Assembly: GCF_009933255.1 (NCBI RefSeq)
Contig: NZ_MAEI01000005.1
Location: 1-64,000, forward strand
Reading direction: 5' to 3'
Length of the DNA stretch: 64,000 bases
Origin: Enterococcus diestrammenae
GTDB lineage: Bacteria > Bacillota > Bacilli > Lactobacillales > Enterococcaceae
Numbering within the stretch: the first letter of the stretch is position 1; the number at the start of each line of letters is the position of its first letter. Positions 1 to 9,912 of this stretch are shown here, piece after piece. The position numbers and the translations under genes are program-made. The notes under the pieces are model-generated. The model made no database searches. It worked only from the letters and a program-made list of their open reading frames with translations, and had not been told where the DNA came from.

Positions 1-297
1 AAGTTCTACTTGAAATTTGCGAGTTAAAAAATTTGGAAATAAATTGCCAATGTAATGGTTGTTCTCAATTCCGTTATACTTCTTATCGATTCGTTTCCCG
101 ATGAAGTTTCCGTCCTTAACGAGGGAGGGAGATTTCCATGAAAAAACAACATCTCCACCAAATTGGTTACTATTGTAAAAATCAAAAACATTTTTATAAA
201 TGCCTTTAGCCAACCCACCCACATCGCTCTTTATGTCATATCTGATCGCACGTTGAGGATCACTCTTTGCTAAATCAATATACTCATTTATTTTCAA
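1..297 (-). CDS. Hypothetical protein, 3' end beyond window
   Basis: An open frame of 99 codons runs from a TTG start at 297 off the left edge with no stop. A good ribosome binding site (AGGAAGGTG) lies just upstream, and no ATG start is available in this frame. The product begins MKINEYIDLAKSD and contains aromatic stretches (YKNVFDFYNSN, VVFSWKSP). I do not recognise the family. It is the first gene downstream of the leftmost att-like core (421-442), so it would be cargo of a further module, or the original flank. A shorter ATG frame at 24-224 is out of frame with this one and is less likely. Confidence 0.5.
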   Translation of the reverse strand, partial: MKINEYIDLAKSDPQRAIRYDIKSDVGGLAKGIYKNVFDFYNSNQFGGDVVFSWKSPSLVKDGNFIGKRIDKKYNGIENNHYIGNLFPNFLTRKFQVEL

Positions 298-419
298 CTT
301 TTACACCTTCCTGCGACTAATACGATTTAATACTACGCTAGAATTTTGTTCAAAGAAAGAACAATCCGAGTAGCATCTCGAACTGCTCAAAAACCTATTA
401 CATCAACATTCCACACGTG

Positions 420-668
420 TTAACAAACACACACTCCACATGACTTTGATATTATGGCTCTGTATGTAACCATCATATTGCCGCCCTTTTCCACAAAGTA
501 TGCTGTATCACCGTCTTTAGCTCGTCCACCTAGAGGCGATTTTCTCCCTGCCGCACCGCCAATGATTATTGTTTTTTCGCCAGCTAGTAATTTTTCAACT
601 TCTTTGTCTTTTTCGTTTAGGTAAACCAAATACTCCGCTTTACCAGATTTCCCTTCATACCACTTCAA
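420..668 (-). pseudogene. Truncated PUA/ASCH-like protein fragment
   Basis: The frame reads KWYEGKSGKAEYLVYLNEKD followed by LLAGEKTIIIGGAAGRK and GDTAYFVEKGG. This resembles the N-terminal half of small ASCH/PUA-like proteins found in Firmicutes; the match is from memory. The only start is a TTG at 668 without a ribosome binding site, and the 5' side runs into another gene fragment. The 3' side ends exactly in the att-like core at 421-442: the last residues SCGVCVC are read from the core in a different frame from the HVEC reading. It is therefore probably broken at both ends and non-functional. Confidence 0.5.
421..442 (-). repeat. att-like core, copy 1 (rlmD 3'-end motif)
   Basis: On the minus strand this reads CATGTGGAGTGTGTGTTTG, encoding HVECVF, the same motif as the C-terminus of the rlmD-type methyltransferase at 8429-9802. 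It is the leftmost of four same-orientation copies. It abuts a truncated gene on its upstream side and a new gene (297 to 1) on its downstream side, as expected for a recombination junction. Confidence 0.65.
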
Positions 669-753
669 ATGTTTTCACTGTTTCATATAATTTGTGAAGC
701 GTTGAATCATTTTGTCTTTTTGCTTCAATCAAGTCATCTTTTGTATATTCCAT
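655..753 (-). pseudogene. Fragment of a small helical hypothetical protein
   Basis: An ATG at 753 with GGGAGG upstream opens a 32-codon frame (MEYTKDDLIEAKRQ, then DSTLHKLYETVKTFE) that stops at 655. It resembles the N-terminus of a family of roughly 60-residue helical proteins that I recall from Firmicutes. It then runs into the unrelated 420-668 frame, overlapping it by a few codons. I read it as the 5' remnant of a gene joined to another remnant by a deletion or recombination. Confidence 0.35.
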
Positions 754-767
754 AATACCTCCCAAGG

Positions 768-1216
768 CTATAATTCCTTCTCCATAACAAAATTGACAAG
801 AACAATACCCTGACGCACCACTTCTTGCTTACTAATTAGTTTATACCTTCTTTCTTCAAAAAAGGGACGTGAGGTAATTGATGCGTGTGTTGTGATTTTT
901 TCATAACCCGCTTGCTCTAACTTGTCGCAAATGACTGTCGCAATACCTTGTCGTTGATAATCCTTGTGAACATAAAGCCTATCAAGATAACCCGTTTTAT
1001 CTATATCTCCAAAGCCTACGATTTTTTTATTTTGTGTTACAACAACACAGTAATTATTCAATAATGATTGATTCCATTTTTCTAAATCTACTTCGCCAGT
1101 TGCCCACACATCTAGTTGCTCTTTTGTGTAGTCCTTTGCATTTATAGTATGTATTGTGTTATAAAACAGCTGAGCAATTTCTTCACAGTCTGGGTTTGAT
1201 ATTCTCTAATAATCAT
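768..1216 (-). pseudogene. GNAT acetyltransferase, frameshifted near the N-terminus
   Basis: A GNAT-fold N-acetyltransferase of about 148 residues. The acetyl-CoA binding region is clear (LDRLYVHKDYQRQGIAT), followed by a C-terminal FFEERRYK motif typical of YafP-like GNATs. Translation should begin at the ATG at 1216, which has GAGGAAT upstream, and gives MIIREYQ. About ten codons in, the frame shifts: restoring one C to the CCC near 1190 gives TPDCEEIAQLFYNTIHTINAKD and joins the rest in frame. As written, only an internal GTG at 1109 would give the 113-residue C-terminal part. The gene may be a true pseudogene, or the base loss may be a sequencing error. Confidence 0.6.
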
Positions 1217-1222
1217 TTTTTG

Positions 1223-1456
1223 TTATTCCTCTCTCTTCACATACCTAATCTCAACATCATACCCAAGTGCCTCCAGCATCTGCACAAAAGTTCTATTTAC
1301 AACACCATCTTGCTTTTTAATGATGCGATTTACATATTGGCTCGTTGTACTGATTTTCTCTGCGAGCTGTGCCTGAGGGGTTTCGTTTTCTATGCATTTG
1401 ACCTTAAGATCAACTTCTATAGTAAGCGAGAAATAATCCAACGCATTTTCTACCAA
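1223..1456 (-). pseudogene. HTH (XRE-like) regulator gene split by IS66; chimeric ORF
   Basis: The body is a small helix-turn-helix protein (QAQLAEKISTTSQYVNRIIKK, then a conserved MLEALGYDVEI tail), the type often found as an antitoxin or small regulator. The IS66 left end starts at 1422. The original 5' end lies across the element at 3834-3855 (MLKSNIE, start ATG at 3855 with AGGAAG upstream). Removing the IS and one target copy restores a 213-bp, 70-residue gene in frame. The present frame takes its first 12 codons (MVENALDYFSLT) from the IS terminal inverted repeat, with a TTG start at 1456 behind a strong AGGAGGGG. A 77-residue variant could therefore still be made. Confidence 0.65.
1414..1421. 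repeat. 8-bp target site duplication of IS66, left copy
   Basis: CTTCTATA lies immediately outside the left inverted repeat and matches 3834-3841 immediately outside the outer right inverted repeat. Eight base pairs is the usual duplication length for the IS66 family. Confidence 0.85.
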
Positions 1457-1505
1457 TCACCCCTCCTTTATACTTAGCTTATTGCTAAATATGAGGAGGG
1501 TTTTT

Positions 1506-1862
1506 ATGATGATCAACTTTGCCAGTGTACCCAAATGCTATTTAATCACTGGCTATACAGACTTACGAAAAGGCATTGACGGCTTAGCTGCCATCCTAAC
1601 TGGAAAATATGGCTTAAACTTATTTGAAGAAGCTATTTTCCTTTTCTGCGGTAGACGTTGCGATCGTTTCAAAGCACTGTACTTTGATGGCGAAGGCTTT
1701 TTTCTGCTATACAAACGCTACGATCAAGGACGGTTAGACTGGCCGAGAAAAACTGATTCTGTGGAAGTTCTGTCTCCCAAACAAGTGGATTGGCTTTTCG
1801 ACGGGCTCTCCATCTACCAAAAGCAAAAAATTCAACCAGCAAAAATTGGTGACCTCACCTAG
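1506..1862 (+). CDS. tnpB: IS66 accessory protein TnpB
   Basis: A 118-residue protein of the IS66 Orf2 family. It starts at the ATG at 1506 (or the adjacent ATG at 1509), behind GAGGAGGG. Family hallmarks are YLITGYTDLRKGIDGLA near the N-terminus and FLFCGRRCDRFKALYFDGEGF followed by LLYKR in the middle. TnpB is needed for transposition of IS66 elements of this type, but its biochemical role is not settled. It is followed at 90 bp by tnpC in the same direction. The full family length suggests an intact gene. Confidence 0.9.
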   Translation: MMINFASVPKCYLITGYTDLRKGIDGLAAILTGKYGLNLFEEAIFLFCGRRCDRFKALYFDGEGFFLLYKRYDQGRLDWPRKTDSVEVLSPKQVDWLFDGLSIYQKQKIQPAKIGDLT

Positions 1863-1951
1863 AAATTTTAAGCACTCTTGATGTGCCTTTCCTCTTATCC
1901 CCATTGAATCTTGGTACGATACACAAGTGTTTCGAGGAAGGAGGAGCTGCG

Positions 1952-3526
1952 ATGACTGAATTAGAAAAAGAGCTAACGAAACAGCTCGCTCGTACGACCA
2001 CTCAGTTAGAAATAATGACCGAGCAGTTGAACAATCAAGCCAAACAAATCGAAAACTTGATGAATATTATTGCCAACATGAACCGTCGTCAATTTGGAAC
2101 AAAATCTGAACAGAATCAAAATCAACTTTCATTGTTAGATGATGAGGAAAATTTCCCTTTTAACAAAGCAGAGCAGACTGCTAGTAAAGCCGCTGAAACA
2201 GAAACAGTTTCCTATCAGCGAAAAAAATACAAGGGTCAGCGTGAAGTGCTGACCCGTCACTTGCCGGTCATCGAAAAGGAGATTCTTCTGCCTGACGATC
2301 GACAGGTTTGTTCGTGTTGTGAACATCAAATGAAACGACTTGGACGCAAATTAGCACGCACAGAGTGGAATTATATTCCTGCTCATTTAGAGAAAAATGA
2401 GTATTACGAAGAAGCTTATGAATGCAGGGAATGCAAGAAGAATGGACAAAACAATATCCATCGTTCAGAAGCACCTAAACCAGTTTTGCCTAAGAGCTTA
2501 GCTGGCCCTAGCTGTTTAGCGAATACCATCTATCAGAAACTAGAAATGAGCCTTCCATTTTATCGTCAGGAAAAAGAATGGCTACGCCATGGGTTAGCTG
2601 TCTCAAGACGAACCTTGGCCAACTGGCATAATAAAAGCCTTCTGGAATGGGGCGTGCCGCTATACGAAGCTATGAAAAAAGAACTTCTCCAGCAGGAAGT
2701 CTTATCCGCAGACGAGACGGTTTATCAAATTTTGTATCGTGAAGATGGCAAACCAGCTACTAGTGATTCTCGTATCTGGCTCTTTCGGACCGCAGAGACG
2801 GCACCAGTTCCGATTGTCCTTTACCACTCTTCTGAAACTCGAAGTTTTGCGGTGGCGGAAAGCTTCCTTCGTGGATTTAAAGGATTCCTCCATTGTGATG
2901 GTTACCAAGTTTACCAGAAACTTCCTGATGTTCTACTTCAAACCTGTTGGGCACATGTTCGACGTAAATTTATTGAAACCAACGATCCTTATGGACAAGG
3001 GGCAGTAGGCGTGAGGTATTGCGATGAATTGTTTCGATTGGAGCGGATTTGGAAAAAAGAAGGGCTATCTGGTGAGGAGCTGTTAGTCAAACGTCAAACT
3101 GACGCAGCAACTTTAGTACAACACTTTTGGGATTGGATGGAAGGGCTAGTCGTGATGAAAGGACCATTACGAAAAGCAATCAACTACACCTTAAAACTCA
3201 AAACGAGCTTAGGTGCCTTTCTAGAAAACAGTCAGTTGGTCATCTCCAATAATCTCGCAGAACGCAGTATTCGCCCGGTTACAGTGGGACGTAAGAACTG
3301 GAATTTCAGTACTAGCCCAGAAGGAGCAAAAGCGAATGCCATCGGCTACAGCCTCATTCAAACCGCTAAGGAAAATGGCTTGGAGCCTTTTCGTTATTTG
3401 ACCTGGCTGTTTACTGAACTGCCCCAGCAAGAGATTTTCCAACATCCGGAACGGATCAAAGATTATCTGCCGTGGTCAGCGCAGGCGAAGCTTGCTTGTA
3501 CGATGACCAACAAAATAGCAAAATAG
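1952..3526 (+). CDS. tnpC: IS66 transposase TnpC
   Basis: A 524-residue DDE transposase that catalyses cleavage and strand transfer of the element ends. The ATG at 1952, behind GGAGGAG, is preferred; the frame stays open upstream without a good start. An N-terminal coiled coil (roughly 1-45) is followed by a zinc-binding region (CSCCEH, later CRECKK) and the catalytic core. The DDE residues are about Asp254 (SADETVYQ), Asp316 (LHCDGYQVY) and Glu437 (NNLAERSIRP). The C-terminus has the usual GYSLIQTAKENGL and LPWS segments. No frameshift or stop is seen. A hairpin at 3533-3553 follows the stop. Confidence 0.92.
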   Translation: MTELEKELTKQLARTTTQLEIMTEQLNNQAKQIENLMNIIANMNRRQFGTKSEQNQNQLSLLDDEENFPFNKAEQTASKAAETETVSYQRKKYKGQREVLTRHLPVIEKEILLPDDRQVCSCCEHQMKRLGRKLARTEWNYIPAHLEKNEYYEEAYECRECKKNGQNNIHRSEAPKPVLPKSLAGPSCLANTIYQKLEMSLPFYRQEKEWLRHGLAVSRRTLANWHNKSLLEWGVPLYEAMKKELLQQEVLSADETVYQILYREDGKPATSDSRIWLFRTAETAPVPIVLYHSSETRSFAVAESFLRGFKGFLHCDGYQVYQKLPDVLLQTCWAHVRRKFIETNDPYGQGAVGVRYCDELFRLERIWKKEGLSGEELLVKRQTDAATLVQHFWDWMEGLVVMKGPLRKAINYTLKLKTSLGAFLENSQLVISNNLAERSIRPVTVGRKNWNFSTSPEGAKANAIGYSLIQTAKENGLEPFRYLTWLFTELPQQEIFQHPERIKDYLPWSAQAKLACTMTNKIAK

Positions 3527-3532
3527 CTCTAA

Positions 3533-3553
3533 TCTCACTAAATTTTAGTGAGA
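3533..3553 (+). terminator. Hairpin after tnpC
   Basis: TCTCACTAAA pairs with TTTAGTGAGA just after the tnpC stop. The T-tract is poor, so it may serve as a terminator or as part of the IS end. Its right arm (TTTTAGTGAGACTAG) is repeated at 3782. Confidence 0.5.
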
Positions 3554-3833
3554 CTAGGGCTATTTGTCGATGCGTTGGATTATTTCCCGCTTACATTTGT
3601 TTGATGGATTTACTTGTATTTTCATCAGTACATTTGATATTCTTAGCTATGGACATTTGGTTATCCTCCTATGATTGGGTTCAGCGATTTAATTATAGGG
3701 CAACCAAATGTCTTTTTGTTATAAAAAATATTTGGTGTCCTTACTCATTTGAGAGTAACAACACCAAATATCATAGAACCATTTTAGTGAGACTAGGGCT
3801 ATTTGGCGATGCGTTGAATTATTTCCCGCTTAC
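3543..3833 (+). repeat. Duplicated IS66 right end with hairpin-rich spacer
   Basis: A 52-bp segment (3543-3594) ending in the right inverted repeat recurs at 3782-3833 with two mismatches. The 187 bp between the copies has no gene but holds two perfect 11-bp inverted repeats: 3652-3662 with 3702-3712 (GACATTTGGTT/AACCAAATGTC) and 3728-3738 with 3761-3771 (ATATTTGGTGT/ACACCAAATAT). It could be the remnant of a second element or a small MITE-like unit carried between the tandem right ends. Confidence 0.7.
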
Positions 3834-3841
3834 CTTCTATA
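3834..3841. repeat. 8-bp target site duplication of IS66, right copy
   Basis: CTTCTATA, identical to 1414-1421. It shows that the outer right end at 3833, not the inner one at 3594, was used in the transposition event. Confidence 0.85.
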
Positions 3842-3916
3842 TTGCTTTTAAGCATAATATTTTCTTCCTATCGCAACACCTAGTTACTTCTAGCACAATT
3901 AAGATGCTTTATTATA
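3834..3916 (-). promoter_or_regulatory. Original 5' end and promoter of the interrupted HTH gene
   Basis: The minus strand shows a TATAAT -10 box (3911-3916) with no clear -35, a ribosome binding site (AGGAAG) and the ATG at 3855 encoding MLKSNIE up to the IS. Transcription from here now runs into the IS66 right end. Confidence 0.5.
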
Positions 3917-3960
3917 CCGCGCTTTTCTCAAGAAATCATTGCCATTTTATGAACGTATGA

Positions 3961-4021
3961 AAAAAGCATCCCGCCGTAGCAGGATGTTGTAAAAAAAGAC
4001 GCTTCCTTTTACAGAAACGTC
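3961..4021 (-). terminator. Two tandem rho-independent terminators
   Basis: Two hairpins with T-runs on the minus strand. The first pairs GACG (3998-4001) with CGTC (4018-4021) and is followed by seven Ts. The second pairs CATCC (3967-3971) with GGATG (3982-3986) and is followed by Ts. They sit upstream of the HTH gene and downstream of core copy 2, so they would insulate the module from read-through out of rlmD and the preceding modules. Confidence 0.55.
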
Positions 4022-4067
4022 CAATTCAAACGAGTAAATACAAACTATCTACTCCAATATTTCATTT

Positions 4068-4208
4068 TCATTTGTTGTATTCCCACTTACTAGGTCTATC
4101 ACTACCCACATTTATATAATCTCTAATCTCTTTATTTCGGATTTTATTCCCCTCACTGGTAAATACGATATGTTTGAAAAAGTATTTAAAAATAAGGATT
4201 TCCAGTCT
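4068..4208 (-). other. Possible C-terminal gene remnant after core copy 2
   Basis: Between core copy 2 and the tandem terminators there is an open stretch on the minus strand that includes HIVFTSEGNKIRNKEIRDY and ends SKWEYNK before a TGA. It has no start codon or ribosome binding site, and I do not recognise it. It could be the broken end of a gene, or chance. The rest of 4022-4219 shows nothing else. Confidence 0.25.
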
Positions 4209-4219
4209 TAATGTCGTTG

Positions 4220-4243
4220 TAGCAAACACACACACTCTACATG
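4220..4243 (-). repeat. att-like core, copy 2
   Basis: The minus strand reads CATGTAGAGTGTGTGTGTTTG and encodes HVECVCLLQRH followed by a stop, like an alternative C-terminus of rlmD. Downstream, GGAAATCCTTATTTTTAAATAC aligns in part with the stretch after the intact rlmD stop (GAAAACCCTTATATATC). This supports common origin beyond the core itself. Confidence 0.65.
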
Positions 4244-4283
4244 AAACGATACCTTGATTTTGATGTATTCATCCACAATTAGA

Positions 4284-4822
4284 TTAATCCAAGATCCATT
4301 TTTCTTTGGTCATGTAATTCGTATGACCGATTCTAATTTCGTTCATTAGTGGAACATCAACATCACCACATGAATGATGAAAAACAAAACCTAACTTCTC
4401 TTGTACTTTTTTAGATTTAAAGTTGCCATCATAATATGCACACCAAATAATATTCATTTTCAAATCCTCAAAGCCATGGCGAATTATTTCTCTTGCGGCT
4501 TCTGGAATATATCCTTTACCCCAAAATTCCTGCCCAATCCAATAGCCAAGCTCACATTCATCATCGCTTTCCGTCATATCTGTATGTCCATTCAATTTAA
4601 GCTCTATACAGCCAATTGCTATATTATCAGTTTTCAAGCAAACAGCATAGCATTCTGAACCACAAAACACATTTTTAATAACATCCAGACTTTCTCCGAC
4701 ATTTTATGCGGAGGCCATCCTGCGATGGGTCCAACTTCTGGATTCTTCGCATACTGATATAAGCTTTCTGCATCCGCTTCTTTCCACGGACGAAGTATTA
4801 ATCTTTCTGTTGTAAGTTTCAT
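4284..4822 (-). pseudogene. RimJ-type GNAT acetyltransferase with a frameshift
   Basis: The intended product is an acetyltransferase of about 180 residues of the RimJ/RimL type: [20 protein letters not shown] at the N-terminus, then ELGYWIGQEFWGKGYIPEAA with the acetyl-CoA binding loop, then KVQEKLGFVFHHS. The ATG at 4822 has AAGGAGATTAG upstream. Near 4706-4712 the frame shifts by one base. Adding one A to an AAAA run ([16 protein letters not shown]) restores a single continuous protein. As written, the N-terminal part ends after about 62 residues and the C-terminal part lacks a proper start. It is the only gene between core copies 2 and 3. Confidence 0.7.
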
Positions 4823-4849
4823 AACTAATCTCCTTTTTAACATCCAATC

Positions 4850-4935
4850 CACCGCCTAAACTATCCGAAATAGACATCCAAATCACCAACTCAATTTTCG
4901 TGTTATCCAAATCGCTGCCTAAACTATGGCTGTTT
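4850..4935 (-). repeat. Degenerate ~33-nt repeats in module leader
   Basis: On the minus strand, three imperfect units contain GCGATTTGGATAAC, GTGATTTGGATGTC and GTGGATTGGATGTT at roughly 33-nt spacing, immediately upstream of the acetyltransferase. A similar series occurs in the leader of the next module (8165-8300). Function unknown. Confidence 0.45.
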
Positions 4936-5036
4936 TGACGGTTGATATGTTCTGTTGGACTGTTGTTTTCCAAATTTTCACTCGCTCGTGAAAATCTCAA
5001 AATCCTCAAATCCCCATATATCAAGGGGTTTTGCAC

Positions 5037-5081
5037 CTACTTTTCTTTAACCTTAGACATCAAACATACCGTCTCCACATG
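5037..5081 (-). repeat. att-like core, copy 3, with alternative rlmD tail
   Basis: The core at 5058-5081 reads CATGTGGAGACGGTATGTTTG and the frame continues to a TAG at 5037, encoding HVETVCLMSKVKEK. This looks like a genuine C-terminus of a RumA/RlmD-family enzyme. A stop codon occurs three codons upstream of the His, so only the tail is present. It is a detached methyltransferase 3' end. Confidence 0.75.
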
Positions 5082-5297
5082 AAGTTTTTAGGCTATTTCA
5101 CATCTTTGAAAAACGCAGTAATAATGCTGTGTTTATGCTGGTTTAACATCCATCTTATCCTCTCAAAAAAATAATCCTTGATTAGGCTATTCTGCTTTTC
5201 GCCGCTTTGACTTCCTATAATTCGCCTTTTATAAATTATGCGTATTAACTCCCAATGTTGAGTATATTCATAGTCTTAACTCATAAAAAGCCTAATG

Positions 5298-5945
5298 TTA
5301 ATTGACAACTGTACCTCCCCATTCTACGACAGTAAAACCTTGCCGCTGAATAGGTTCGAGAGTTTGTTCCTCAATAGAAATAACTTCTTTAAGGGGTTTA
5401 TATGCCATAAAAACTCTCAAAATGCTATCAGGTTCAGGTATTATTTCCAATTCTGCATTGTCTGTATAAATTTCATTCTGAAAAGTAATAAGATTGTATG
5501 GATTGTTTTGCATTTTGGGGAGCCAGTAGACAATAAACTCATTATATTCTTTTGGTGTCAAACCAATATACTCTAATTTGTCCCTTAAAAATCCAGCAGT
5601 ATCTTCCCCTTTCACAATAAACCCCTTACTCATATCATATTCAATATTGCTATTGCCTTCCCAAAACAGATAAGAGTACTCTTTCCCATCTTTTTGGTTG
5701 ATTAACATTCCGTCAGGATGAGCAGTTACAGTCCAGCCCTCATAATAAGTAGGGTAGGTGCAAATAATGCTACCATTATAATCTAACTTAACTGTTACTT
5801 CCATTGTTTCTTCTGGATATAGATAAATTACTGGTTTTGCGTCTGTTGGTTCATCATCCTTATTCTTATCTTCACACCCTGTCATAAATAATACTATTGA
5901 AAACATTAGGGCTATACACAATAGAGTAAATTTAAGTTTTTTCAT
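5298..5945 (-). CDS. Lipoprotein with KPVIYLYP domain
   Basis: A 215-residue predicted lipoprotein. A basic N-terminus and a hydrophobic segment (residues 6-22) lead to the lipobox FMTGC, so the mature protein would be anchored at Cys24 on the outer face of the membrane. A charged linker is followed by a conserved domain that begins KPVIYLYPEE and ends FTVVEWGGT. I recall this domain in proteins of several bacterial groups, without known function. The ATG at 5945 has AAAGGAG upstream. It is the last gene of the module between cores 8450 and 5081, after the recombinase and on the same strand. No adjacent gene suggests a role. Confidence 0.75.
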   Translation of the reverse strand: MKKLKFTLLCIALMFSIVLFMTGCEDKNKDDEPTDAKPVIYLYPEETMEVTVKLDYNGSIICTYPTYYEGWTVTAHPDGMLINQKDGKEYSYLFWEGNSNIEYDMSKGFIVKGEDTAGFLRDKLEYIGLTPKEYNEFIVYWLPKMQNNPYNLITFQNEIYTDNAELEIIPEPDSILRVFMAYKPLKEVISIEEQTLEPIQRQGFTVVEWGGTVVN

Positions 5946-6106
5946 ATCAAAATCAACTCCTTTATATTATAAGACGATAACACTTACAACTGGTTCCATC
6001 TCTAGTGATTTTAGGATTGCTATATAGTAGGAATTAGTTACTAAAATATGCATGAATGAGTTGCGCATTATAAAACAATTGCGATCTATCTCAATTTCTT
6101 AATTAT

Positions 6107-7030
6107 TTACTTCTTTGAACTATATTTTTTGCTTTTTCGCTTGCTTCCATCTTCGCCCTCTGTAACATTGCTTCGGTGCTGTTTTTCAATCTGCACCGCT
6201 TGGAATGTTTCCTTAGATATTATCACAGGATTGTTATTCTCTGCCCGATAGTATGCATCGTGTTTTCCATTATCCAGTAAGTGTACATTTCCTGTGTATT
6301 TTTCGTTACTGAGCATAACGTCAATTGTTCTCTTAGGCCATGTAGCCTTTCCGGTGGGCGATTTAATTCCCAGTAGTTCCAGTTCTTTCACAATGCCTAA
6401 AACACTCTTACCCTGAAGATAGAGGTTAAATATCATGTGGACATTTTTTGCTTCTTTCTTATCAATTATCAGCTTACCTTCTGCATCATTTATATATCCA
6501 TAACACTTTCTGTTATATAGCTTCGAAGTGCCTTGTGCTGCATGTCGTTTAATACCCCATTTAATATTGTCGCTGCGGGATTCATTTTCTGCTTGAGCAA
6601 CTGCCTCGATAATTGAAATCATCAAGTCATTATCTGTATCGGCTGTATCAAGTACTTCCTGTTCAAATATGACCCGAACGCCGAGAACCCTTAGCTGGTT
6701 CCATGCATCAAGAATCTCTACTGTGTCTCGGCCAAATCTGCTGATGCTCTTGGTTAGGATAATTTCTAAGTCACGCGACTGACAGTCCTGCAGCATACGA
6801 GAAAACTCTTTTCGAGAGGAACCTGTCTTGCTTGAAGCAATATCTATATATACATCAACCAATAGCCATTTGGGATTAGCTGCTGTCAATCTTGTTAGCG
6901 CCGACACTTGGGCGGTAAGACTTTTCAGCTGGTCAGCACTATTTGTACTCACATGACAATAAATACCGACCCTCTTTTCTCGTTTTGAAGGCAATGGTGG
7001 TATGAAATGTATTCTTTTATCATCAGCCAC
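6107..7030 (-). CDS. Serine recombinase, short form with altered active-site motif
   Basis: A 307-residue site-specific recombinase of the serine (resolvase/invertase) superfamily. The catalytic domain (about 20-165) has Ser28 in YCHVST, later SISRFGRD, and the long E-helix. A recombinase DNA-binding domain follows (about 170-280; GYINDAEGKLIIDKKEA, SPTGKATWPKRTIDVMLSNEKYTG). The usual motif is YxRVS; here the Arg two residues before Ser28 is His26, and in gamma-delta resolvase that Arg is an active-site residue. The zinc ribbon and C-terminal coiled coil of large integrases (about 500 residues) are absent, with only a basic tail. The start is GTG at 7030 with GGAGG upstream. It could be a relic of the integrase that built the island, or one partner of a multi-recombinase set. 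Confidence 0.85.
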   Translation of the reverse strand: MADDKRIHFIPPLPSKREKRVGIYCHVSTNSADQLKSLTAQVSALTRLTAANPKWLLVDVYIDIASSKTGSSRKEFSRMLQDCQSRDLEIILTKSISRFGRDTVEILDAWNQLRVLGVRVIFEQEVLDTADTDNDLMISIIEAVAQAENESRSDNIKWGIKRHAAQGTSKLYNRKCYGYINDAEGKLIIDKKEAKNVHMIFNLYLQGKSVLGIVKELELLGIKSPTGKATWPKRTIDVMLSNEKYTGNVHLLDNGKHDAYYRAENNNPVIISKETFQAVQIEKQHRSNVTEGEDGSKRKSKKYSSKK

Positions 7031-7081
7031 GATAAAACCTCCAAGATAACAGGCTTATTGAAAAATTAGCAATTTTCATGC

Positions 7082-8077
7082 TCATATATTGCTTTTATTG
7101 GAAACTAATAAGGTATTTATTTTATTATGAAGTAATTCTACATCATAATCAACATTGCTTAATATTGTTACTATCAACTGTTTACCTAAATCATAAGATG
7201 TTATAAAATTAACTCCAGGGTCACAACCTTGAAACGAAGGGATTTTGCCATTAAGAAGCCATACTCCAAAACCATAATATCCTTCTGCAATTTGAGGAGA
7301 AAACATCTTTTCCAATGACTCCTTATTAATTAGTTCTCCGTTTACTAATGCAGTCCAAAATTTTTCAATATCATGTGCTGTTGTAAATGCCCCTCCTGCA
7401 CCGCTTCCTTTTGCATCAATAGAAAAGATATTAGTACGATATTCATTCCTTTTATAATCAAAAATATAAGAGAACGCACATTTTGCAGGTAATCTATCAA
7501 GTTCAAAATATCCAGTATCAGTCATTCTGCATGTATCAAAAATAGTTTCCTGAAGATAAACATCGAAAGGTTTTCCCGTTATCTCCTCAATAACTAATCC
7601 AAGAACTACATAACCCGTGTTATTGTATTGAAATCGTTCCCCTTTTGGATACATCATAGGCTTATCAATAAACAAAGGAATTAAATCTGATGATTTTCTA
7701 ATGCGATAATTCGGGATATTAATCCATAACTCCTCATAATTATTCATAACAGATTCATCAAAATAATCAGGTATTCCTGAAGTATGATTTAACAATTGGC
7801 TTATTGTTATCCCCGAATCAATCTCCTTCAAATCAAATTTTAATACTTCTCCAATTGTTGTATCAAAGTTTATGATTTTTTGTTCAATTAAGTTCAGTAT
7901 TGCAGTCGCTACAAAAACCTTACCAGCTGAAGCTGTACCAAACTTCGTGTCCATTCTATTTGGGATTTCATTTGCCTTATCAGCAAATCCGTATCCACCT
8001 TGGAAAATATTTTTACTTCCTTGCACTATTGAAATTACTCCACTAAATTTCTCGTCAATCAAGTCATTTACGTTCAT
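7082..8077 (-). CDS. Serine hydrolase, beta-lactamase/transpeptidase-like fold
   Basis: A 331-residue protein of the serine beta-lactamase-like superfamily (class C/EstB/AmpH-like). The nucleophile motif SxxK is SAGK in GTASAGKVF. The second motif is YNNTGYVVLG, and the HTSGIPDYF segment is typical. The natural substrate is unknown; relatives include esterases, D-aminopeptidases and peptidoglycan-active enzymes, so resistance should not be assumed. There is no signal peptide, so it is probably cytoplasmic. The start chosen is the ATG at 8077, with AGGAGAA upstream; longer versions start without a site. It is the first cargo gene downstream of rlmD. Confidence 0.85.
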   Translation of the reverse strand: MNVNDLIDEKFSGVISIVQGSKNIFQGGYGFADKANEIPNRMDTKFGTASAGKVFVATAILNLIEQKIINFDTTIGEVLKFDLKEIDSGITISQLLNHTSGIPDYFDESVMNNYEELWINIPNYRIRKSSDLIPLFIDKPMMYPKGERFQYNNTGYVVLGLVIEEITGKPFDVYLQETIFDTCRMTDTGYFELDRLPAKCAFSYIFDYKRNEYRTNIFSIDAKGSGAGGAFTTAHDIEKFWTALVNGELINKESLEKMFSPQIAEGYYGFGVWLLNGKIPSFQGCDPGVNFITSYDLGKQLIVTILSNVDYDVELLHNKINTLLVSNKSNI

Positions 8078-8164
8078 TTTTTCTATTCTCCTAATACAAA
8101 TAATCATCTTTCCATTTAGTACCACGACCAATAAACATATTAACATATTTCAGGCATGTTGGTT

Positions 8165-8300
8165 AGCCTATTTAGCGACATTTTAACCTTAACATCAAAC
8201 CTAACCACACAACCTCAACTTTTTCAGAAGACATCTAAATCGACCACTCGCGAACCCATGTTATCCAAACTGACCACTCGTCAAACACCGACATCTAAAT
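8165..8300 (-). repeat. Degenerate ~30-nt repeats in module leader
   Basis: The minus strand shows a series of imperfect units: GCGATTTAGATGTC, GTCAGTTTGGATAACATGG, GTCGATTTAGATGTC and GGTTTGATGTTAAGG, spaced about 30 nt and partly joined by GCGAGTG/ACGAGTG. They precede the serine hydrolase gene and resemble the repeats at 4850-4935 ahead of another module's cargo. The remainder of 8078-8428 has no gene that I can support. Confidence 0.45.
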
Positions 8301-8428
8301 CGCTCTGTCACGTTCAAAATCATGCCTTTGGACTTGTTCCCACGAAGCGATATTTTCATGTTTTTCGCTCAATGGGTTTTGTAACCATGTGTGCTAAAAG
8401 TATTGATATATAAGGGTTTTCAGTGCTC

Positions 8429-9802
8429 TCAATCATTTTTCCTTGTTATCAATACTACGCACTCAACGTGATACGTCTGAGGAAACAGATCCACCGGCTG
8501 TACTTTTTCAGCCTGATAGCCGGCTGCCGCAAAAAGTTTCAAATCCCGAGCCAACGTGGCTGGGTTGCACGATACGTAAACAATCCGATCCGGCGCTACA
8601 TTGACAGCTGCCTCAATAAAACGAGCGTCCAAGCCTTTCCGAGGTGGGTCAACGAAAATAATGTCGGGCTTCAGGTCTTCCCGTGCCCATTGCGTCATTA
8701 CTTTTTCTGCTTTGCCAACAAGATACGTGGCATTTTCAATTCCGTTGATTTCAGCATTGATTTTGGCATCAGCCACGGCTTCGGGGATGGATTCCACACC
8801 GTAGACATGATCTACCCGGTCAGCCACTGATAAGCCGATGGTACCGATACCTGAGTAGGCATCAATAACCACATCTGTTTTTTTCAATTGAGCAAAATCA
8901 AAGGCTGTTTCATAGAGAATTTCAGCTTGCTCGGTATTCACTTGATAAAATGACGGAGCCGAGATGCGGAAAGTTTTTCCAAGCAATTGGTCTTCAATAT
9001 AACTCTTTCCATACAAGACCACCTCTTTCTCCCCAAAAATCACATTGGTACGTTCTTCATTGATGTTTTGGATCACGGAAACCACTTCCGGAATTTCTTC
9101 GTGAATCACCTCAGCAATGGTTTCCCCTTTGAAAAATTTGGCTTTACGAGTAACCAACACCACCATCATCTCATGGCTATAATGACCGCGACGAATTACA
9201 ATATGCCGCAAAAAACCTTCATGAGCGGTTTCATTGTAGGCTTTCACACCGAAGCGCTCCAAAATCTCGCGAACTTTCACAATGGCTTCATCAATGGCTT
9301 CGTCTTGAATATAGAAATCTTCAATAGCAATCATATCATGGCTATTTTTGCGATAAAAACCAGTCGCCAGCTTACCGTCGATTTTACGGACTGGAATTTG
9401 AGCTTTATTGCGGTAGTGATCTGGTTTGGCCATGCCAATCGTTGGCAATACCGGAACCTCAGGCATGCCCGCAATTTTTTTCAAGTTGTTTTCCACTTGT
9501 TTTTGTTTGAAGACTAGTTGTGCTTCATAGGACAAATGGCTTAATGGCGCAATCCCGGTCCGCAACAAATCTTCGTTGGCGTTTTTTACCCGATCAGGGC
9601 TAGTGCTTTGATATTTCATGACTTTTGCAAAGCCAAATTTATTGCCGACTTTCAACACCTTGATGTCCACAACTTCTCCAGGAAGCGCATTTTCAATAAA
9701 TAAAAGGTAATGATCGACTTTGGCAATCCCCATGCCTTCATGGGAGAGGTCAGTAATTGTTACTGTTAATTCTTGATTCTTTTTCACTGGGTAATCCTTC
9801 AT
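8429..9802 (-). CDS. rlmCD: 23S rRNA (uracil-5-)-methyltransferase, RlmD/RlmCD family
   Basis: A 457-residue AdoMet-dependent RNA m5U methyltransferase. In Gram-positives one such enzyme may modify U747 and U1939 of 23S rRNA. An N-terminal TRAM domain (about 1-62; LSHEGMGIAKVD) binds RNA. The catalytic domain has the AdoMet motif DAYSGIGTIG (about 315), DPPRKGLD (about 383) and the nucleophile in SCNPATLARDL (Cys about 412). The general-base Glu is expected in HVECVV near the C-terminus. The iron-sulfur cysteines of E. coli RlmD are missing (RTGIAPLSHLSYEAQL). The ATG at 9802, with GAGGGA upstream, is preferred over the ATGs at 9829-9832. The accessory island is joined at its 3' end, and the present tail is LITRKND. 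Confidence 0.93.
   Translation of the reverse strand: MKDYPVKKNQELTVTITDLSHEGMGIAKVDHYLLFIENALPGEVVDIKVLKVGNKFGFAKVMKYQSTSPDRVKNANEDLLRTGIAPLSHLSYEAQLVFKQKQVENNLKKIAGMPEVPVLPTIGMAKPDHYRNKAQIPVRKIDGKLATGFYRKNSHDMIAIEDFYIQDEAIDEAIVKVREILERFGVKAYNETAHEGFLRHIVIRRGHYSHEMMVVLVTRKAKFFKGETIAEVIHEEIPEVVSVIQNINEERTNVIFGEKEVVLYGKSYIEDQLLGKTFRISAPSFYQVNTEQAEILYETAFDFAQLKKTDVVIDAYSGIGTIGLSVADRVDHVYGVESIPEAVADAKINAEINGIENATYLVGKAEKVMTQWAREDLKPDIIFVDPPRKGLDARFIEAAVNVAPDRIVYVSCNPATLARDLKLFAAAGYQAEKVQPVDLFPQTYHVECVVLITRKND
8450..8470 (-). repeat. att-like core inside the intact rlmD 3' end
   Basis: The minus strand reads CACGTTGAGTGCGTAGTATTG (HVECVVL). It closely resembles the rum-gene attachment site that I recall for streptococcal ICEs such as ICESp2905, which begins CACGTGGAGTGCGTAG. 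It is the reference copy for the three displaced cores at 5058, 4220 and 421. Confidence 0.7.
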
Positions 9803-9888
9803 CTTGATCCCTCGACTTTCTTTGTTCATCATACGGGAAAGTTGGCTAAGTTACAATCATTTTCCCACTGCCTTAAGGCAAAACAAAG

Positions 9889-9912
9889 TACCGGCAAAAA
9901 GACCGGCACTCC
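9889..9912 (-). terminator. Terminator after dagK
   Basis: AGTGCCGG pairs with CCGGTACT (one G-U pair) around a short T-rich loop and is followed by TTTGTTTTG on the minus strand, just downstream of the dagK stop. Confidence 0.6.

What the first reader, a model, noticed from the sequence alone, without database searches (positions are those of the whole stretch)
421..8470. Four same-orientation att-like cores split an accessory island at the rlmD 3' end into stacked modules
Seen: CACGTTGAGTGCGTAGTATTG inside rlmD (8450-8470) and three displaced relatives at 5058-5081, 4220-4243 and 421-442, all on the minus strand and all readable as HVE(C/T)V. Known: the 3' end of this methyltransferase gene (rum/rumA) is an integration site for some ICEs with serine recombinases. 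Inference: this is a serial or tandem accretion of small modules (cargo 3.4, 0.8 and 3.8 kb, plus one beyond the edge), almost like a cassette array. No module carries a complete integrase or conjugation genes, so they may move in trans or be decayed remains.
Basis: partly seen in the sequence, partly recalled or inferred. Interest (0 to 1): 0.8.

Follow-up and report, generated by a model that had tools for sequence, protein, structure and literature searches.

The report
Stacked recombinase cassettes behind rlmD
Behind a ribosomal-RNA methyltransferase gene in an Enterococcus, small mobile DNA segments appear stacked one after another at copies of the same attachment site, and the first of them belongs to a large, apparently undescribed family of very small elements that carry a short DNA recombinase and form similar stacks in some other bacteria.

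Summary
The four same-strand cores are real (3 displaced hits, 0.0025 expected). What follows each core is found behind rlmD cores in other genomes. So four left ends are stacked at the rlmD 3' end, the last cut by the contig edge. Serial accretion is supported; tandem elements at this gene are known (PMC4320837, PMC11578063). 'No complete integrase' is wrong for module 1. Its 307-aa serine recombinase is full length for a large family (113 of the 120 proteins listed have 307 or 308 aa). Module 1 (8470-5058) has the family anatomy: core, iteron-bearing left end, cargo, recombinase, cargo, right end AAATAGCCTA, core. Of 19 genomic recombinase copies, 18 have an rlmD-type core within 3 kb on the same strand, 11 on both sides. 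One genome has three such cassettes in a row, one has two; two elements are only 1.2-1.3 kb; one sits in a Streptococcus prophage record. About 2% of genomes sampled have one. My paper searches listed no description of them. This genome's copy has His where the other 119 listed homologues have Arg in the catalytic motif, so it is probably immobile alone. Excision was not shown.

The parts
8429..9832 (-). rlmD (rumA), 467 aa, target gene; its last codons (ITRKND*) would come from module 1's left end
   Evidence: Pfam tRNA_U5-meth_tr and TRAM; relatives with other tails
8450..8470 (-). core 1 (attL of module 1), inside rlmD
8130..8470 (-). left end (LE) of module 1, noncoding, conserved in the cassette family
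   Evidence: 75.5% over 282 bp to L198, 76.7% over 288 bp to L202 cassette 3, also L204, L205, L208, L225
8191..8315 (-). four core-like same-sense iterons in LE (8315-8290, 8285-8260, 8255-8230, 8216-8191)
   Evidence: PWM scan, 0 of 300 shuffles reach the summed score; the direct-repeat finder also groups three of them with the core
7082..8146 (-). cargo: serine hydrolase of the Pfam Beta-lactamase family (354-aa ORF); far below the cut-offs of the NCBIfam families it matched
6107..7030 (-). 307-aa serine recombinase (Resolvase + Recombinase domains, no zinc-ribbon hit); His at residue 26 where the other 119 listed homologues have Arg
5298..5945 (-). cargo: putative lipoprotein, 215 aa, no family hit (lipoprotein call from its N-terminus, by eye)
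5058..5199 (-). right end (RE) of module 1 with AATAGCCTA-N7-core (5097-5082 before the core)
   Evidence: 80-87% to four REs in L202 (two), L203 and L204, 73% to L208; junction list
5058..5081 (-). core 2: attR of module 1 and left core of module 2
4839..5055 (-). left arm of module 2: LE-like, three core-like iterons (4927-4902, 4898-4873, 4864-4839)
   Evidence: 0 of 300 shuffles; 5081 onward 77% over 83 columns to the rlmD-linked left end in L205
4284..4852 (-). module 2 cargo: GNAT acetyltransferase split between two frames
   Evidence: DNA relatives in G064, G054
4220..4243 (-). core 3; upstream half resembles the other (class B) type by eye, downstream half = left arm of a larger element
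3991..4225 (-). left arm of module 3, as found directly after rlmD in CU9D (L023), E. ratti and G051
   Evidence: 84.8% over 237 bp to L023, 80.8% over 78 bp and 73% over 256 bp; 97% copy on contig C15
3541..3833 (.). ISL3-related MITE-like repeat (about 3595-3785) between two copies of an IS66 end
   Evidence: 94-97% matches in five Enterococcaceae genomes; ISL3 transposase under some plasmid matches; end copies by eye
1438..3594 (+). IS66 insertion (tnpB 1482-1862, transposase 1883-3526) in module 3; bounds by eye, absent from the C15 copy
   Evidence: Pfam; C15 comparison
1223..1456 (-). small ORF with helix-turn-helix look (by eye), no family hit
   Evidence: copy on C15
768..1109 (-). GNAT acetyltransferase, module 3
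421..442 (-). core 4: right core of module 3, left core of module 4
350..436 (-). left arm of module 4 (LLTRVEC* tail and terminator-like sequence), as after rlmD in E. pseudoavium and G001
   Evidence: 78.7% over 89 columns to L044, 72% to G001
1..297 (-). module 4 gene, cut by the contig edge; homologues about 1.1-1.5 kb behind rlmD in CU12B and Vagococcus bubulae
   Evidence: 83.8% and 74.3% nt; no Pfam hit for it or the two homologues

Best explanation
The 3' end of rlmD is an attB site at which serine-recombinase elements have inserted one after another. Each insertion splits a 20-26 bp core, supplies rlmD with a new in-frame tail, and leaves a core between neighbours, so the next element can insert at any core. 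Module 1 (8470-5058) is a full-anatomy member of a family of small cassettes: core, a left end of about 330 bp with core-like iterons, cargo, a 307-aa recombinase read in the rlmD direction, cargo, a conserved right end (AAATAGCCTA-N7) and core. I infer that this recombinase cuts and joins the cores and that the iterons are accessory binding sites. Modules 2-4 are the remains or left ends of other elements that use the same core, one of them related to an element of about 24 kb behind rlmD in CU9D that ends in a ~600-aa integrase gene. Shown: anatomy, conserved ends, co-location, tandem arrays elsewhere, other content behind rlmD in relatives. Inferred: the reaction, the order of insertion, the role of the iterons, and that this genome's module 1 can no longer move by itself.
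For: Cores above chance. Junction logic: the sequence after core 3 follows rlmD directly in CU9D, and on contig C15 of the same genome it follows a core with different DNA upstream. Integrases of about 600 aa with a core in their 3' end in G093 (by regex) and CU9D (by eye). Recombinase family: 3374 homologues at E<=1e-20; of the 120 listed, own protein included, 93 have 307 aa and 20 have 308 aa. Of 19 recombinase copies in 15 genomes, 18 have an rlmD-type core within 3 kb on the same strand, 11 on both sides (copies); 10 of 15 genomes show rlmD, an rlmD-like gene or its 3' end on the fetched stretch. Arrays: G286 three cassettes, G560 two. Elements of 1.2-1.3 kb with the recombinase as only same-strand ORF of 70 aa or more: G378, G181. 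The RE pattern gave 11 matches in 10 of 391 genomes and 0 reversed-pattern matches. Conserved LE and RE with different cargo. LE iterons: 0/300 shuffles in 8 of 14 LEs.
Against: No excised circle, empty-site pair of the same strain or transfer was observed. The recombinase's target is inferred from location; larger recombinases share the core. Three of four homologues in viral contigs (36-52% identical) have no core in the stretch held, and G694 has none on its 5.3-kb contig. Two of the eight recombinase genomes (G281, G332) have no RE-pattern match. Iterons are weaker in 6 of 14 LEs (3, 5, 11, 20, 22 and 113 of 300 shuffles), and cassette 3 of G286 holds a second iteron block without a core (about 7090-6845 of L202), which the simple plan does not predict. 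Module 2 pairs an LE-like left arm with a right end of the other type, so at least one deletion or rearrangement must be assumed. The AlphaFold model was too poor to use (mean pLDDT 43.6).
Confidence: 0.82

Rival explanations
1. Ordinary decayed ICE/IME accretion (CIMEs): the modules are deletion remnants of large conjugative elements and the short recombinase is passenger cargo.
For: Tandem elements at rumA are known; CIME-type accretion is the published explanation for such tandems; module 3's left arm is shared with an element of about 24 kb; modules 2 and 3 look decayed.
Against: Module 1-type elements recur with the same two ends, a same-length recombinase and different cargo in distant genomes, in tandem copies, and at 1.2-1.3 kb with little but the recombinase between the cores. 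Deletion remnants should not converge on one structure.
Confidence: 0.13
2. Chance or coding conservation: the displaced cores are copies of the rlmD C-terminus made by gene duplication or random matches.
For: Cores can be read as HVE(C/T)V; more than 3 mismatches to the rlmD core.
Against: 0.0025 hits expected; the sequences before the displaced cores are not rlmD but other halves, one of them conserved in many junctions; matches to other genomes start at or beside the core.
Confidence: 0.01
3. Cassettes are moved only in trans by the larger rlmD-specific integrases of ICEs and prophages, the 307-aa protein being a regulator or helper.
For: Larger homologues (about 35% identical) lie in the fetched stretches of L203, L204, L206 and L209; recombinase-less modules exist; this genome's copy has an altered catalytic motif; one cassette sits next to a prophage integrase gene.
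Against: All 119 other listed homologues keep RVS, which argues for selection on catalysis; the two smallest elements carry no other same-strand ORF of 70 aa or more.
Confidence: 0.2

Closest known systems
rumA-specific ICEs and IMEs of streptococci (PMC4701971, PMC5357655; passages read)
   Same: Serine recombinase, insertion inside rumA/rlmD, short direct repeats, rumA tail exchanged
   Different: Those carry conjugation or mobilisation genes, and for the ICEs the att site lies in the integrase gene; module 1 and its kin are 1.2-4.1 kb, with no relaxase or conjugation gene among the ORFs I scanned, a 307-aa recombinase without a zinc-ribbon hit, and the right core outside the gene
C. difficile CTn5/CTn7 tandem at rumA (PMC4320837, passages read) and the Dehalobacter rumA nested recombinase island (PMC11578063, abstract and passages read)
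   Same: Tandem stacking of elements at the same gene end
   Different: CTn5 and CTn7 are conjugative transposons; the internal elements of the Dehalobacter island were not delimited; no small cassette family, LE iterons or RE motif in the passages read
Prophages at rlmD/rumA (PMC12785378 in Erysipelothrix, PMC7168690 in S. suis; passages read)
   Same: Same gene as integration site
   Different: Whole prophages, not small cassettes
CIME accretion (PMC5704250, passages read)
   Same: Elements without transfer genes kept between att sites
   Different: CIMEs are decay products; the cassette family has its own recombinase and conserved ends
Integron gene-cassette arrays (recalled)
   Same: Small cassettes in one orientation behind a fixed site, recombination sites between them
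   Different: Integrons use one tyrosine recombinase outside the array and attC hairpins; here each cassette usually carries its own serine recombinase and the sites look like duplex att cores
SCC elements with Ccr recombinases at rlmH (recalled; CcrB is the best NCBIfam hit of the recombinase, 83.7 bits against a cut-off of 900)
   Same: Serine recombinases at the 3' end of an rRNA methyltransferase gene
   Different: Different gene, larger Ccr proteins, larger elements

Membership tests
rlmD short-recombinase cassette (defined here) | Left core inside rlmD or behind another module, same strand | tested here: met
   Core 8470-8450
rlmD short-recombinase cassette (defined here) | About 307-aa Resolvase + Recombinase protein read in the rlmD direction | tested here: met
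   6107-7030(-)
rlmD short-recombinase cassette (defined here) | Conserved LE with core-like iterons | tested here: met
rlmD short-recombinase cassette (defined here) | RE with AATAGCCTA-N7 before the right core | tested here: met
   5097-5081
rlmD short-recombinase cassette (defined here) | Catalytic RVS motif (needed for activity, not for anatomy) | tested here: not met
   HVS in this copy, RVS in the other 119 listed homologues; a family member by anatomy, probably inactive
Streptococcal-type rumA ICE/IME | Insertion in rumA by a serine recombinase | tested here: inconclusive
   Location, core and recombinase gene fit; the reaction itself was not tested
Streptococcal-type rumA ICE/IME | Core inside the 3' end of the integrase gene (reported for rumA ICEs) | tested here: not met
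   Module 1 recombinase ends 1.0 kb before core 2; met instead by the CU9D and G093 integrases
Streptococcal-type rumA ICE/IME | Relaxase or conjugation genes | tested here: not met
   No such hit among the window ORFs scanned by Pfam
CIME (decayed ICE) | att sites kept, recombination and transfer genes lost | tested here: inconclusive
   Fits modules 2 and 3; module 1 keeps a recombinase gene
Integron cassette array | Tyrosine integrase and attC sites | tested here: not met
   The recombinase is of the serine type; attC not searched for

The most novel reading that the evidence does not exclude
An integron-like system built on a serine recombinase: cassettes of 1-5 kb with core-bearing ends insert at rlmD and at each other's cores, are exchanged in cis and in trans by a ~307-aa recombinase without the usual C-terminal domains, use core-like iterons in the left end for directionality (like accessory sites of resolvases), and spread defence and stress genes by riding in prophages and ICEs that use the same attachment site.
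Probability: 0.35. Interest if true: 0.86.

Novelty: new variant of a known kind. Interest (0 to 1): 0.72.

Why it matters
It would explain part of the unassigned DNA behind rlmD in gut Firmicutes as arrays of definable cassettes with recognisable ends, give a simple signature (RE motif plus core) for finding new cargo such as defence genes, and offer a natural short serine recombinase with which to ask what the missing C-terminal domains and the iterons do for directionality.

Tried and rejected
Search for the 21-nt rlmD core at up to 3 mismatches in window and genome found only the rlmD copy: a strict repeat is not the right test.

A tRNA-linked island: no tRNA in the window. A known RNA in the left end: no Rfam match at the gathering score in window 1-9900.

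The contig C15 module as the far end of the same island: the dlt-like genes of C15 (named by eye) have a relative about 630 kb from rlmD in G003, so C15 looks like a second locus; not proven.

Structure prediction of the recombinase from 25 close homologues: mean pLDDT 43.6, not used. Genus siblings of G286 for presence/absence: only G286 itself was returned.

Plasmid and phage collections by DNA: no record held most of the query; short matches to the MITE-like repeat, the recombinase, the acetyltransferases and the serine hydrolase. By protein at E<=1e-60: 1 plasmid and 5 phage records with 48-52% identical recombinases; of the phages I opened only Javan105.

Absence of module 1 from other Enterococcaceae rests, where only some candidates per genome were scored (2, at most 5), so it is not proof.
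Full report
WHERE. The window is the start of contig C5 of a 3.16-Mb genome in 54 contigs. Its rlmD (467 aa, 8429-9832, minus strand) is closest, among the loci returned, to Enterococcus sp. CU9D (86%), so the organism is an Enterococcus or a near relative.

OBSERVATION. A degenerate 14-mer, written after seeing them, gives 3 displaced hits behind rlmD against 0.0025 expected, none on the other strand and none in 9833-64000. In 42 regions downstream of rlmD-type genes (448,344 bases, window included; some genomes occur twice, once by name and once by handle) there were 4 sense and 0 antisense hits, 3 of the 4 in this window; upstream control 1 in 316,800 bases on both strands. So such stacks are not the rule in Enterococcaceae. 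With at most 3 mismatches the 21-nt rlmD core is found once only: the displaced cores are diverged.

JUNCTIONS. What follows each core is found behind an rlmD core elsewhere. Core 1: 8470-8417 is 83.6% identical to the end of rlmD in a Ruminococcus MAG (L061). Core 2: the arm after 5081 is 77% identical over 83 columns to the left end behind rlmD in L205. Core 3: 4225-3991 is 84.8% identical over 237 bp to the DNA directly behind rlmD in CU9D, and 80.8% over 78 bp in E. ratti. On contig C15 of the same genome, 4243-3834 is repeated at 97% and 1421-1135 at 91%, side by side without the IS66 and MITE-like insertions of the window copy, but with different DNA (a MobA/MobL relaxase gene) upstream of the core. 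Core 4: 436-350 is 78.7% identical to the rlmD end of E. pseudoavium and 72% to that of G001; the next gene (364-22) is 83.8% identical to DNA behind rlmD in CU12B and 74.3% to DNA behind rlmD in Vagococcus bubulae. In CU9D, about 24 kb behind rlmD, an integrase gene (open frame 605 aa) ends in a core and a tail almost identical to the rlmD tail of V. bubulae (compared by eye). G093 and G065 have integrases with open frames of 609 and 598 aa; the core is in the 3' end of the G093 gene, and I saw none in the G065 gene. This agrees with the exchange of rumA and integrase 3' ends reported for streptococcal ICEs (PMC4701971, passages).

RELATIVES. Among nine genus relatives, five (G002, G003, G006, G007, G008) share three gene families behind rlmD (G002 with one ORF more before them) and show no displaced core in about 18 kb; G001, G004 and G005 each have other content, and G009's contig ends there. 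No match to the recombinase stretch of module 1 was listed for the other 104 Enterococcaceae genomes (only the two best candidates per genome were scored), and none of the Enterococcaceae genomes drawn matched except the own one.

MODULE 1. The recombinase (6107-7030) has the Resolvase and Recombinase domains only. It is not a fragment: 3374 proteins match at E<=1e-20, and of the 120 listed, own protein included, 93 have 307 aa and 20 have 308 aa. Three relatives checked by Pfam have the same two domains. All 119 other listed proteins have RVS at the motif that holds the catalytic serine (motif recalled); this genome's copy alone has HVS, and a solved relative (3g13) has R there. I therefore think that this copy is inactive; not tested.

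THE FAMILY. Three searches gave 19 copies in 15 genomes: 10 copies in 8 of 391 genomes of the class of a Ruminococcus MAG at E<=1e-90, 8 copies in 6 of 395 genomes of the window's order, own copy included, and 1 copy in 1 of 35 genomes behind my rlmD loci at E<=1e-60. At most five candidates per genome were scored in the two larger searches, so copy numbers are lower bounds. 18 of 19 have an rlmD-type core within 3 kb on the same strand, 11 of them on both sides; the exception is G694 on a 5.3-kb contig. 10 of 15 genomes show rlmD, an rlmD-like gene (31-33% identical in G560 and G795) or its 3' end (G610) in the stretch fetched; G318, G251, G361 and G603 show cores but no rlmD in about 20 kb. 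In G795 two rlmD-like genes each carry an element. G286 has rlmD followed by three cassettes (cores 13309, 10638, 8262 and about 4583 of L202), each with its own 307- or 308-aa recombinase and different neighbours; its third cassette holds a second iteron block without a core. G560 has two in a row. In G378 and G181 the element is 1.3 and 1.2 kb and the recombinase is its only same-strand ORF of 70 aa or more. Outside genomes, one viral contig (L198, recombinase 96% identical) shows the RE and core, while three others with 36-52% identical homologues show no core.

ENDS. The first 280-340 bp after core 1 are 75-77% identical to left ends in L198 and L202, with further matches in L204, L205, L208 and L225; 5199-5054 is 80-87% identical to four right ends in L202, L203 and L204, and 73% to one in L208. 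I listed 23 junctions with AGCCTA seven bases before the core (chosen for this motif, so a description, not a test). Searched as a pattern it gave 11 matches in 10 of 391 genomes and no match of the reversed pattern. Of these 11, six border modules with a recombinase already known, one (G374:C109) a module with a C-terminal recombinase piece, one (G181) a new minimal element with a 44% identical recombinase, one (G215) a NUDIX module without recombinase; two (G461, G159) lie at contig edges. Two of the eight recombinase genomes (G281, G332) had no match. A second type of upstream half, GACATCAAT...CTCGANC, precedes other cores (L206, L208, L224, L225), and cores 3 and C15 resemble it by eye.

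ITERONS. Left ends contain repeats of about 23-26 nt resembling the core, in the same sense, about 30 bp apart and roughly 150-255 bp after the core starts. With a matrix built from 16 cores, the sum of the four best sites was reached by 0 of 300 shuffles in 8 of 14 left ends (window modules 1 and 2, L202c, L204, L205, L225a, L225b, L087b) and by 3, 5, 11, 20, 22 and 113 of 300 in L202b, L203, L198, L061, L202a and L065. In module 2 three of the four sites are in the repeat block. The repeat finder independently groups three of module 1's repeats with core 1.

CARGO. Window: a Beta-lactamase-family serine hydrolase (far below the cut-offs of the NCBIfam families it matched) and a putative lipoprotein. 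Elsewhere: HTH with DUF3791/DUF3990, metallophosphoesterase, WapI-type immunity protein, NUDIX with a weak SRA-like hit, methyltransferase with ABC transporter parts, HAD with GNAT; several cargo ORFs had no hit. Modules without a recombinase hit: L065 (hydrolase, DUF6037; class A right end) and L224 (NUDIX by eye; class A right end), tblastn E<=1e-3, and L225 2351-6163 (Piwi plus SIR2, type-B right end), tblastn E<=1e-15.

A ROUTE. In Streptococcus phage Javan105 a homologue (52%) lies just behind the prophage integrase gene, with a core-like sequence at the integrase 3' end and the AGCCTA-type right end and core at 4002-4028; the arm after both cores is nearly the same by eye. Cassettes can thus sit inside a prophage end; that they move with it is inference.

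KNOWN OR NEW. rumA as a hotspot, prophages there, and tandem elements there are in print (PMC4320837, PMC11578063, PMC4701971, PMC5357655, PMC5704250, PMC7168690, PMC12785378; abstracts and passages only). Nine full-text searches listed no paper whose title or abstract start describes short-recombinase cassettes at rlmD; most listed papers were not opened, some lists were capped, and most subscription journals are not held. I file it as a new variant of a known kind.

CHECK. 

Noticed in passing
L155 (G000:C15:46000-56825), 7636-6941: Second copy of the module 3 left part in the same genome, without IS66 and MITE-like insertions, next to a MobA/MobL relaxase gene and near dlt-like genes (named by eye).
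   Followed up: partly
L208 (G361:C1), 16187-14313, 14286-12412, 9238-7365: Three group II introns (Rfam RF02003 and RF00029); at two of them a core stands directly before the intron (16238, 9289), so the att core may be an intron homing site.
   Followed up: partly
L225 (G374:C109), 2351-6163: Core-to-core module with a Piwi-domain protein and a SIR2-like protein (short Argonaute-type defence pair, label recalled) and no recombinase hit.
   Followed up: partly
L239 and L240 (G795): Two rlmD-like genes of one genome each carry a short-recombinase element.
   Followed up: partly
L202 (G286:C12), about 7090-6845: A second left-end-like iteron block inside cassette 3, without a recognisable core in front: perhaps two fused cassettes.
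   Followed up: partly
window 3541-3833: Repeated IS66-end sequence on both sides of an ISL3-related MITE-like repeat of about 190 bp that has matches in many Enterococcaceae genomes.
   Followed up: no
L087 14779-15249 and 13505-14782: DUF3990 gene beside a recombinase ORF that carries a DUF3791 domain at its C-terminus: toxin-antitoxin-like cargo in the recombinase frame.
   Followed up: no
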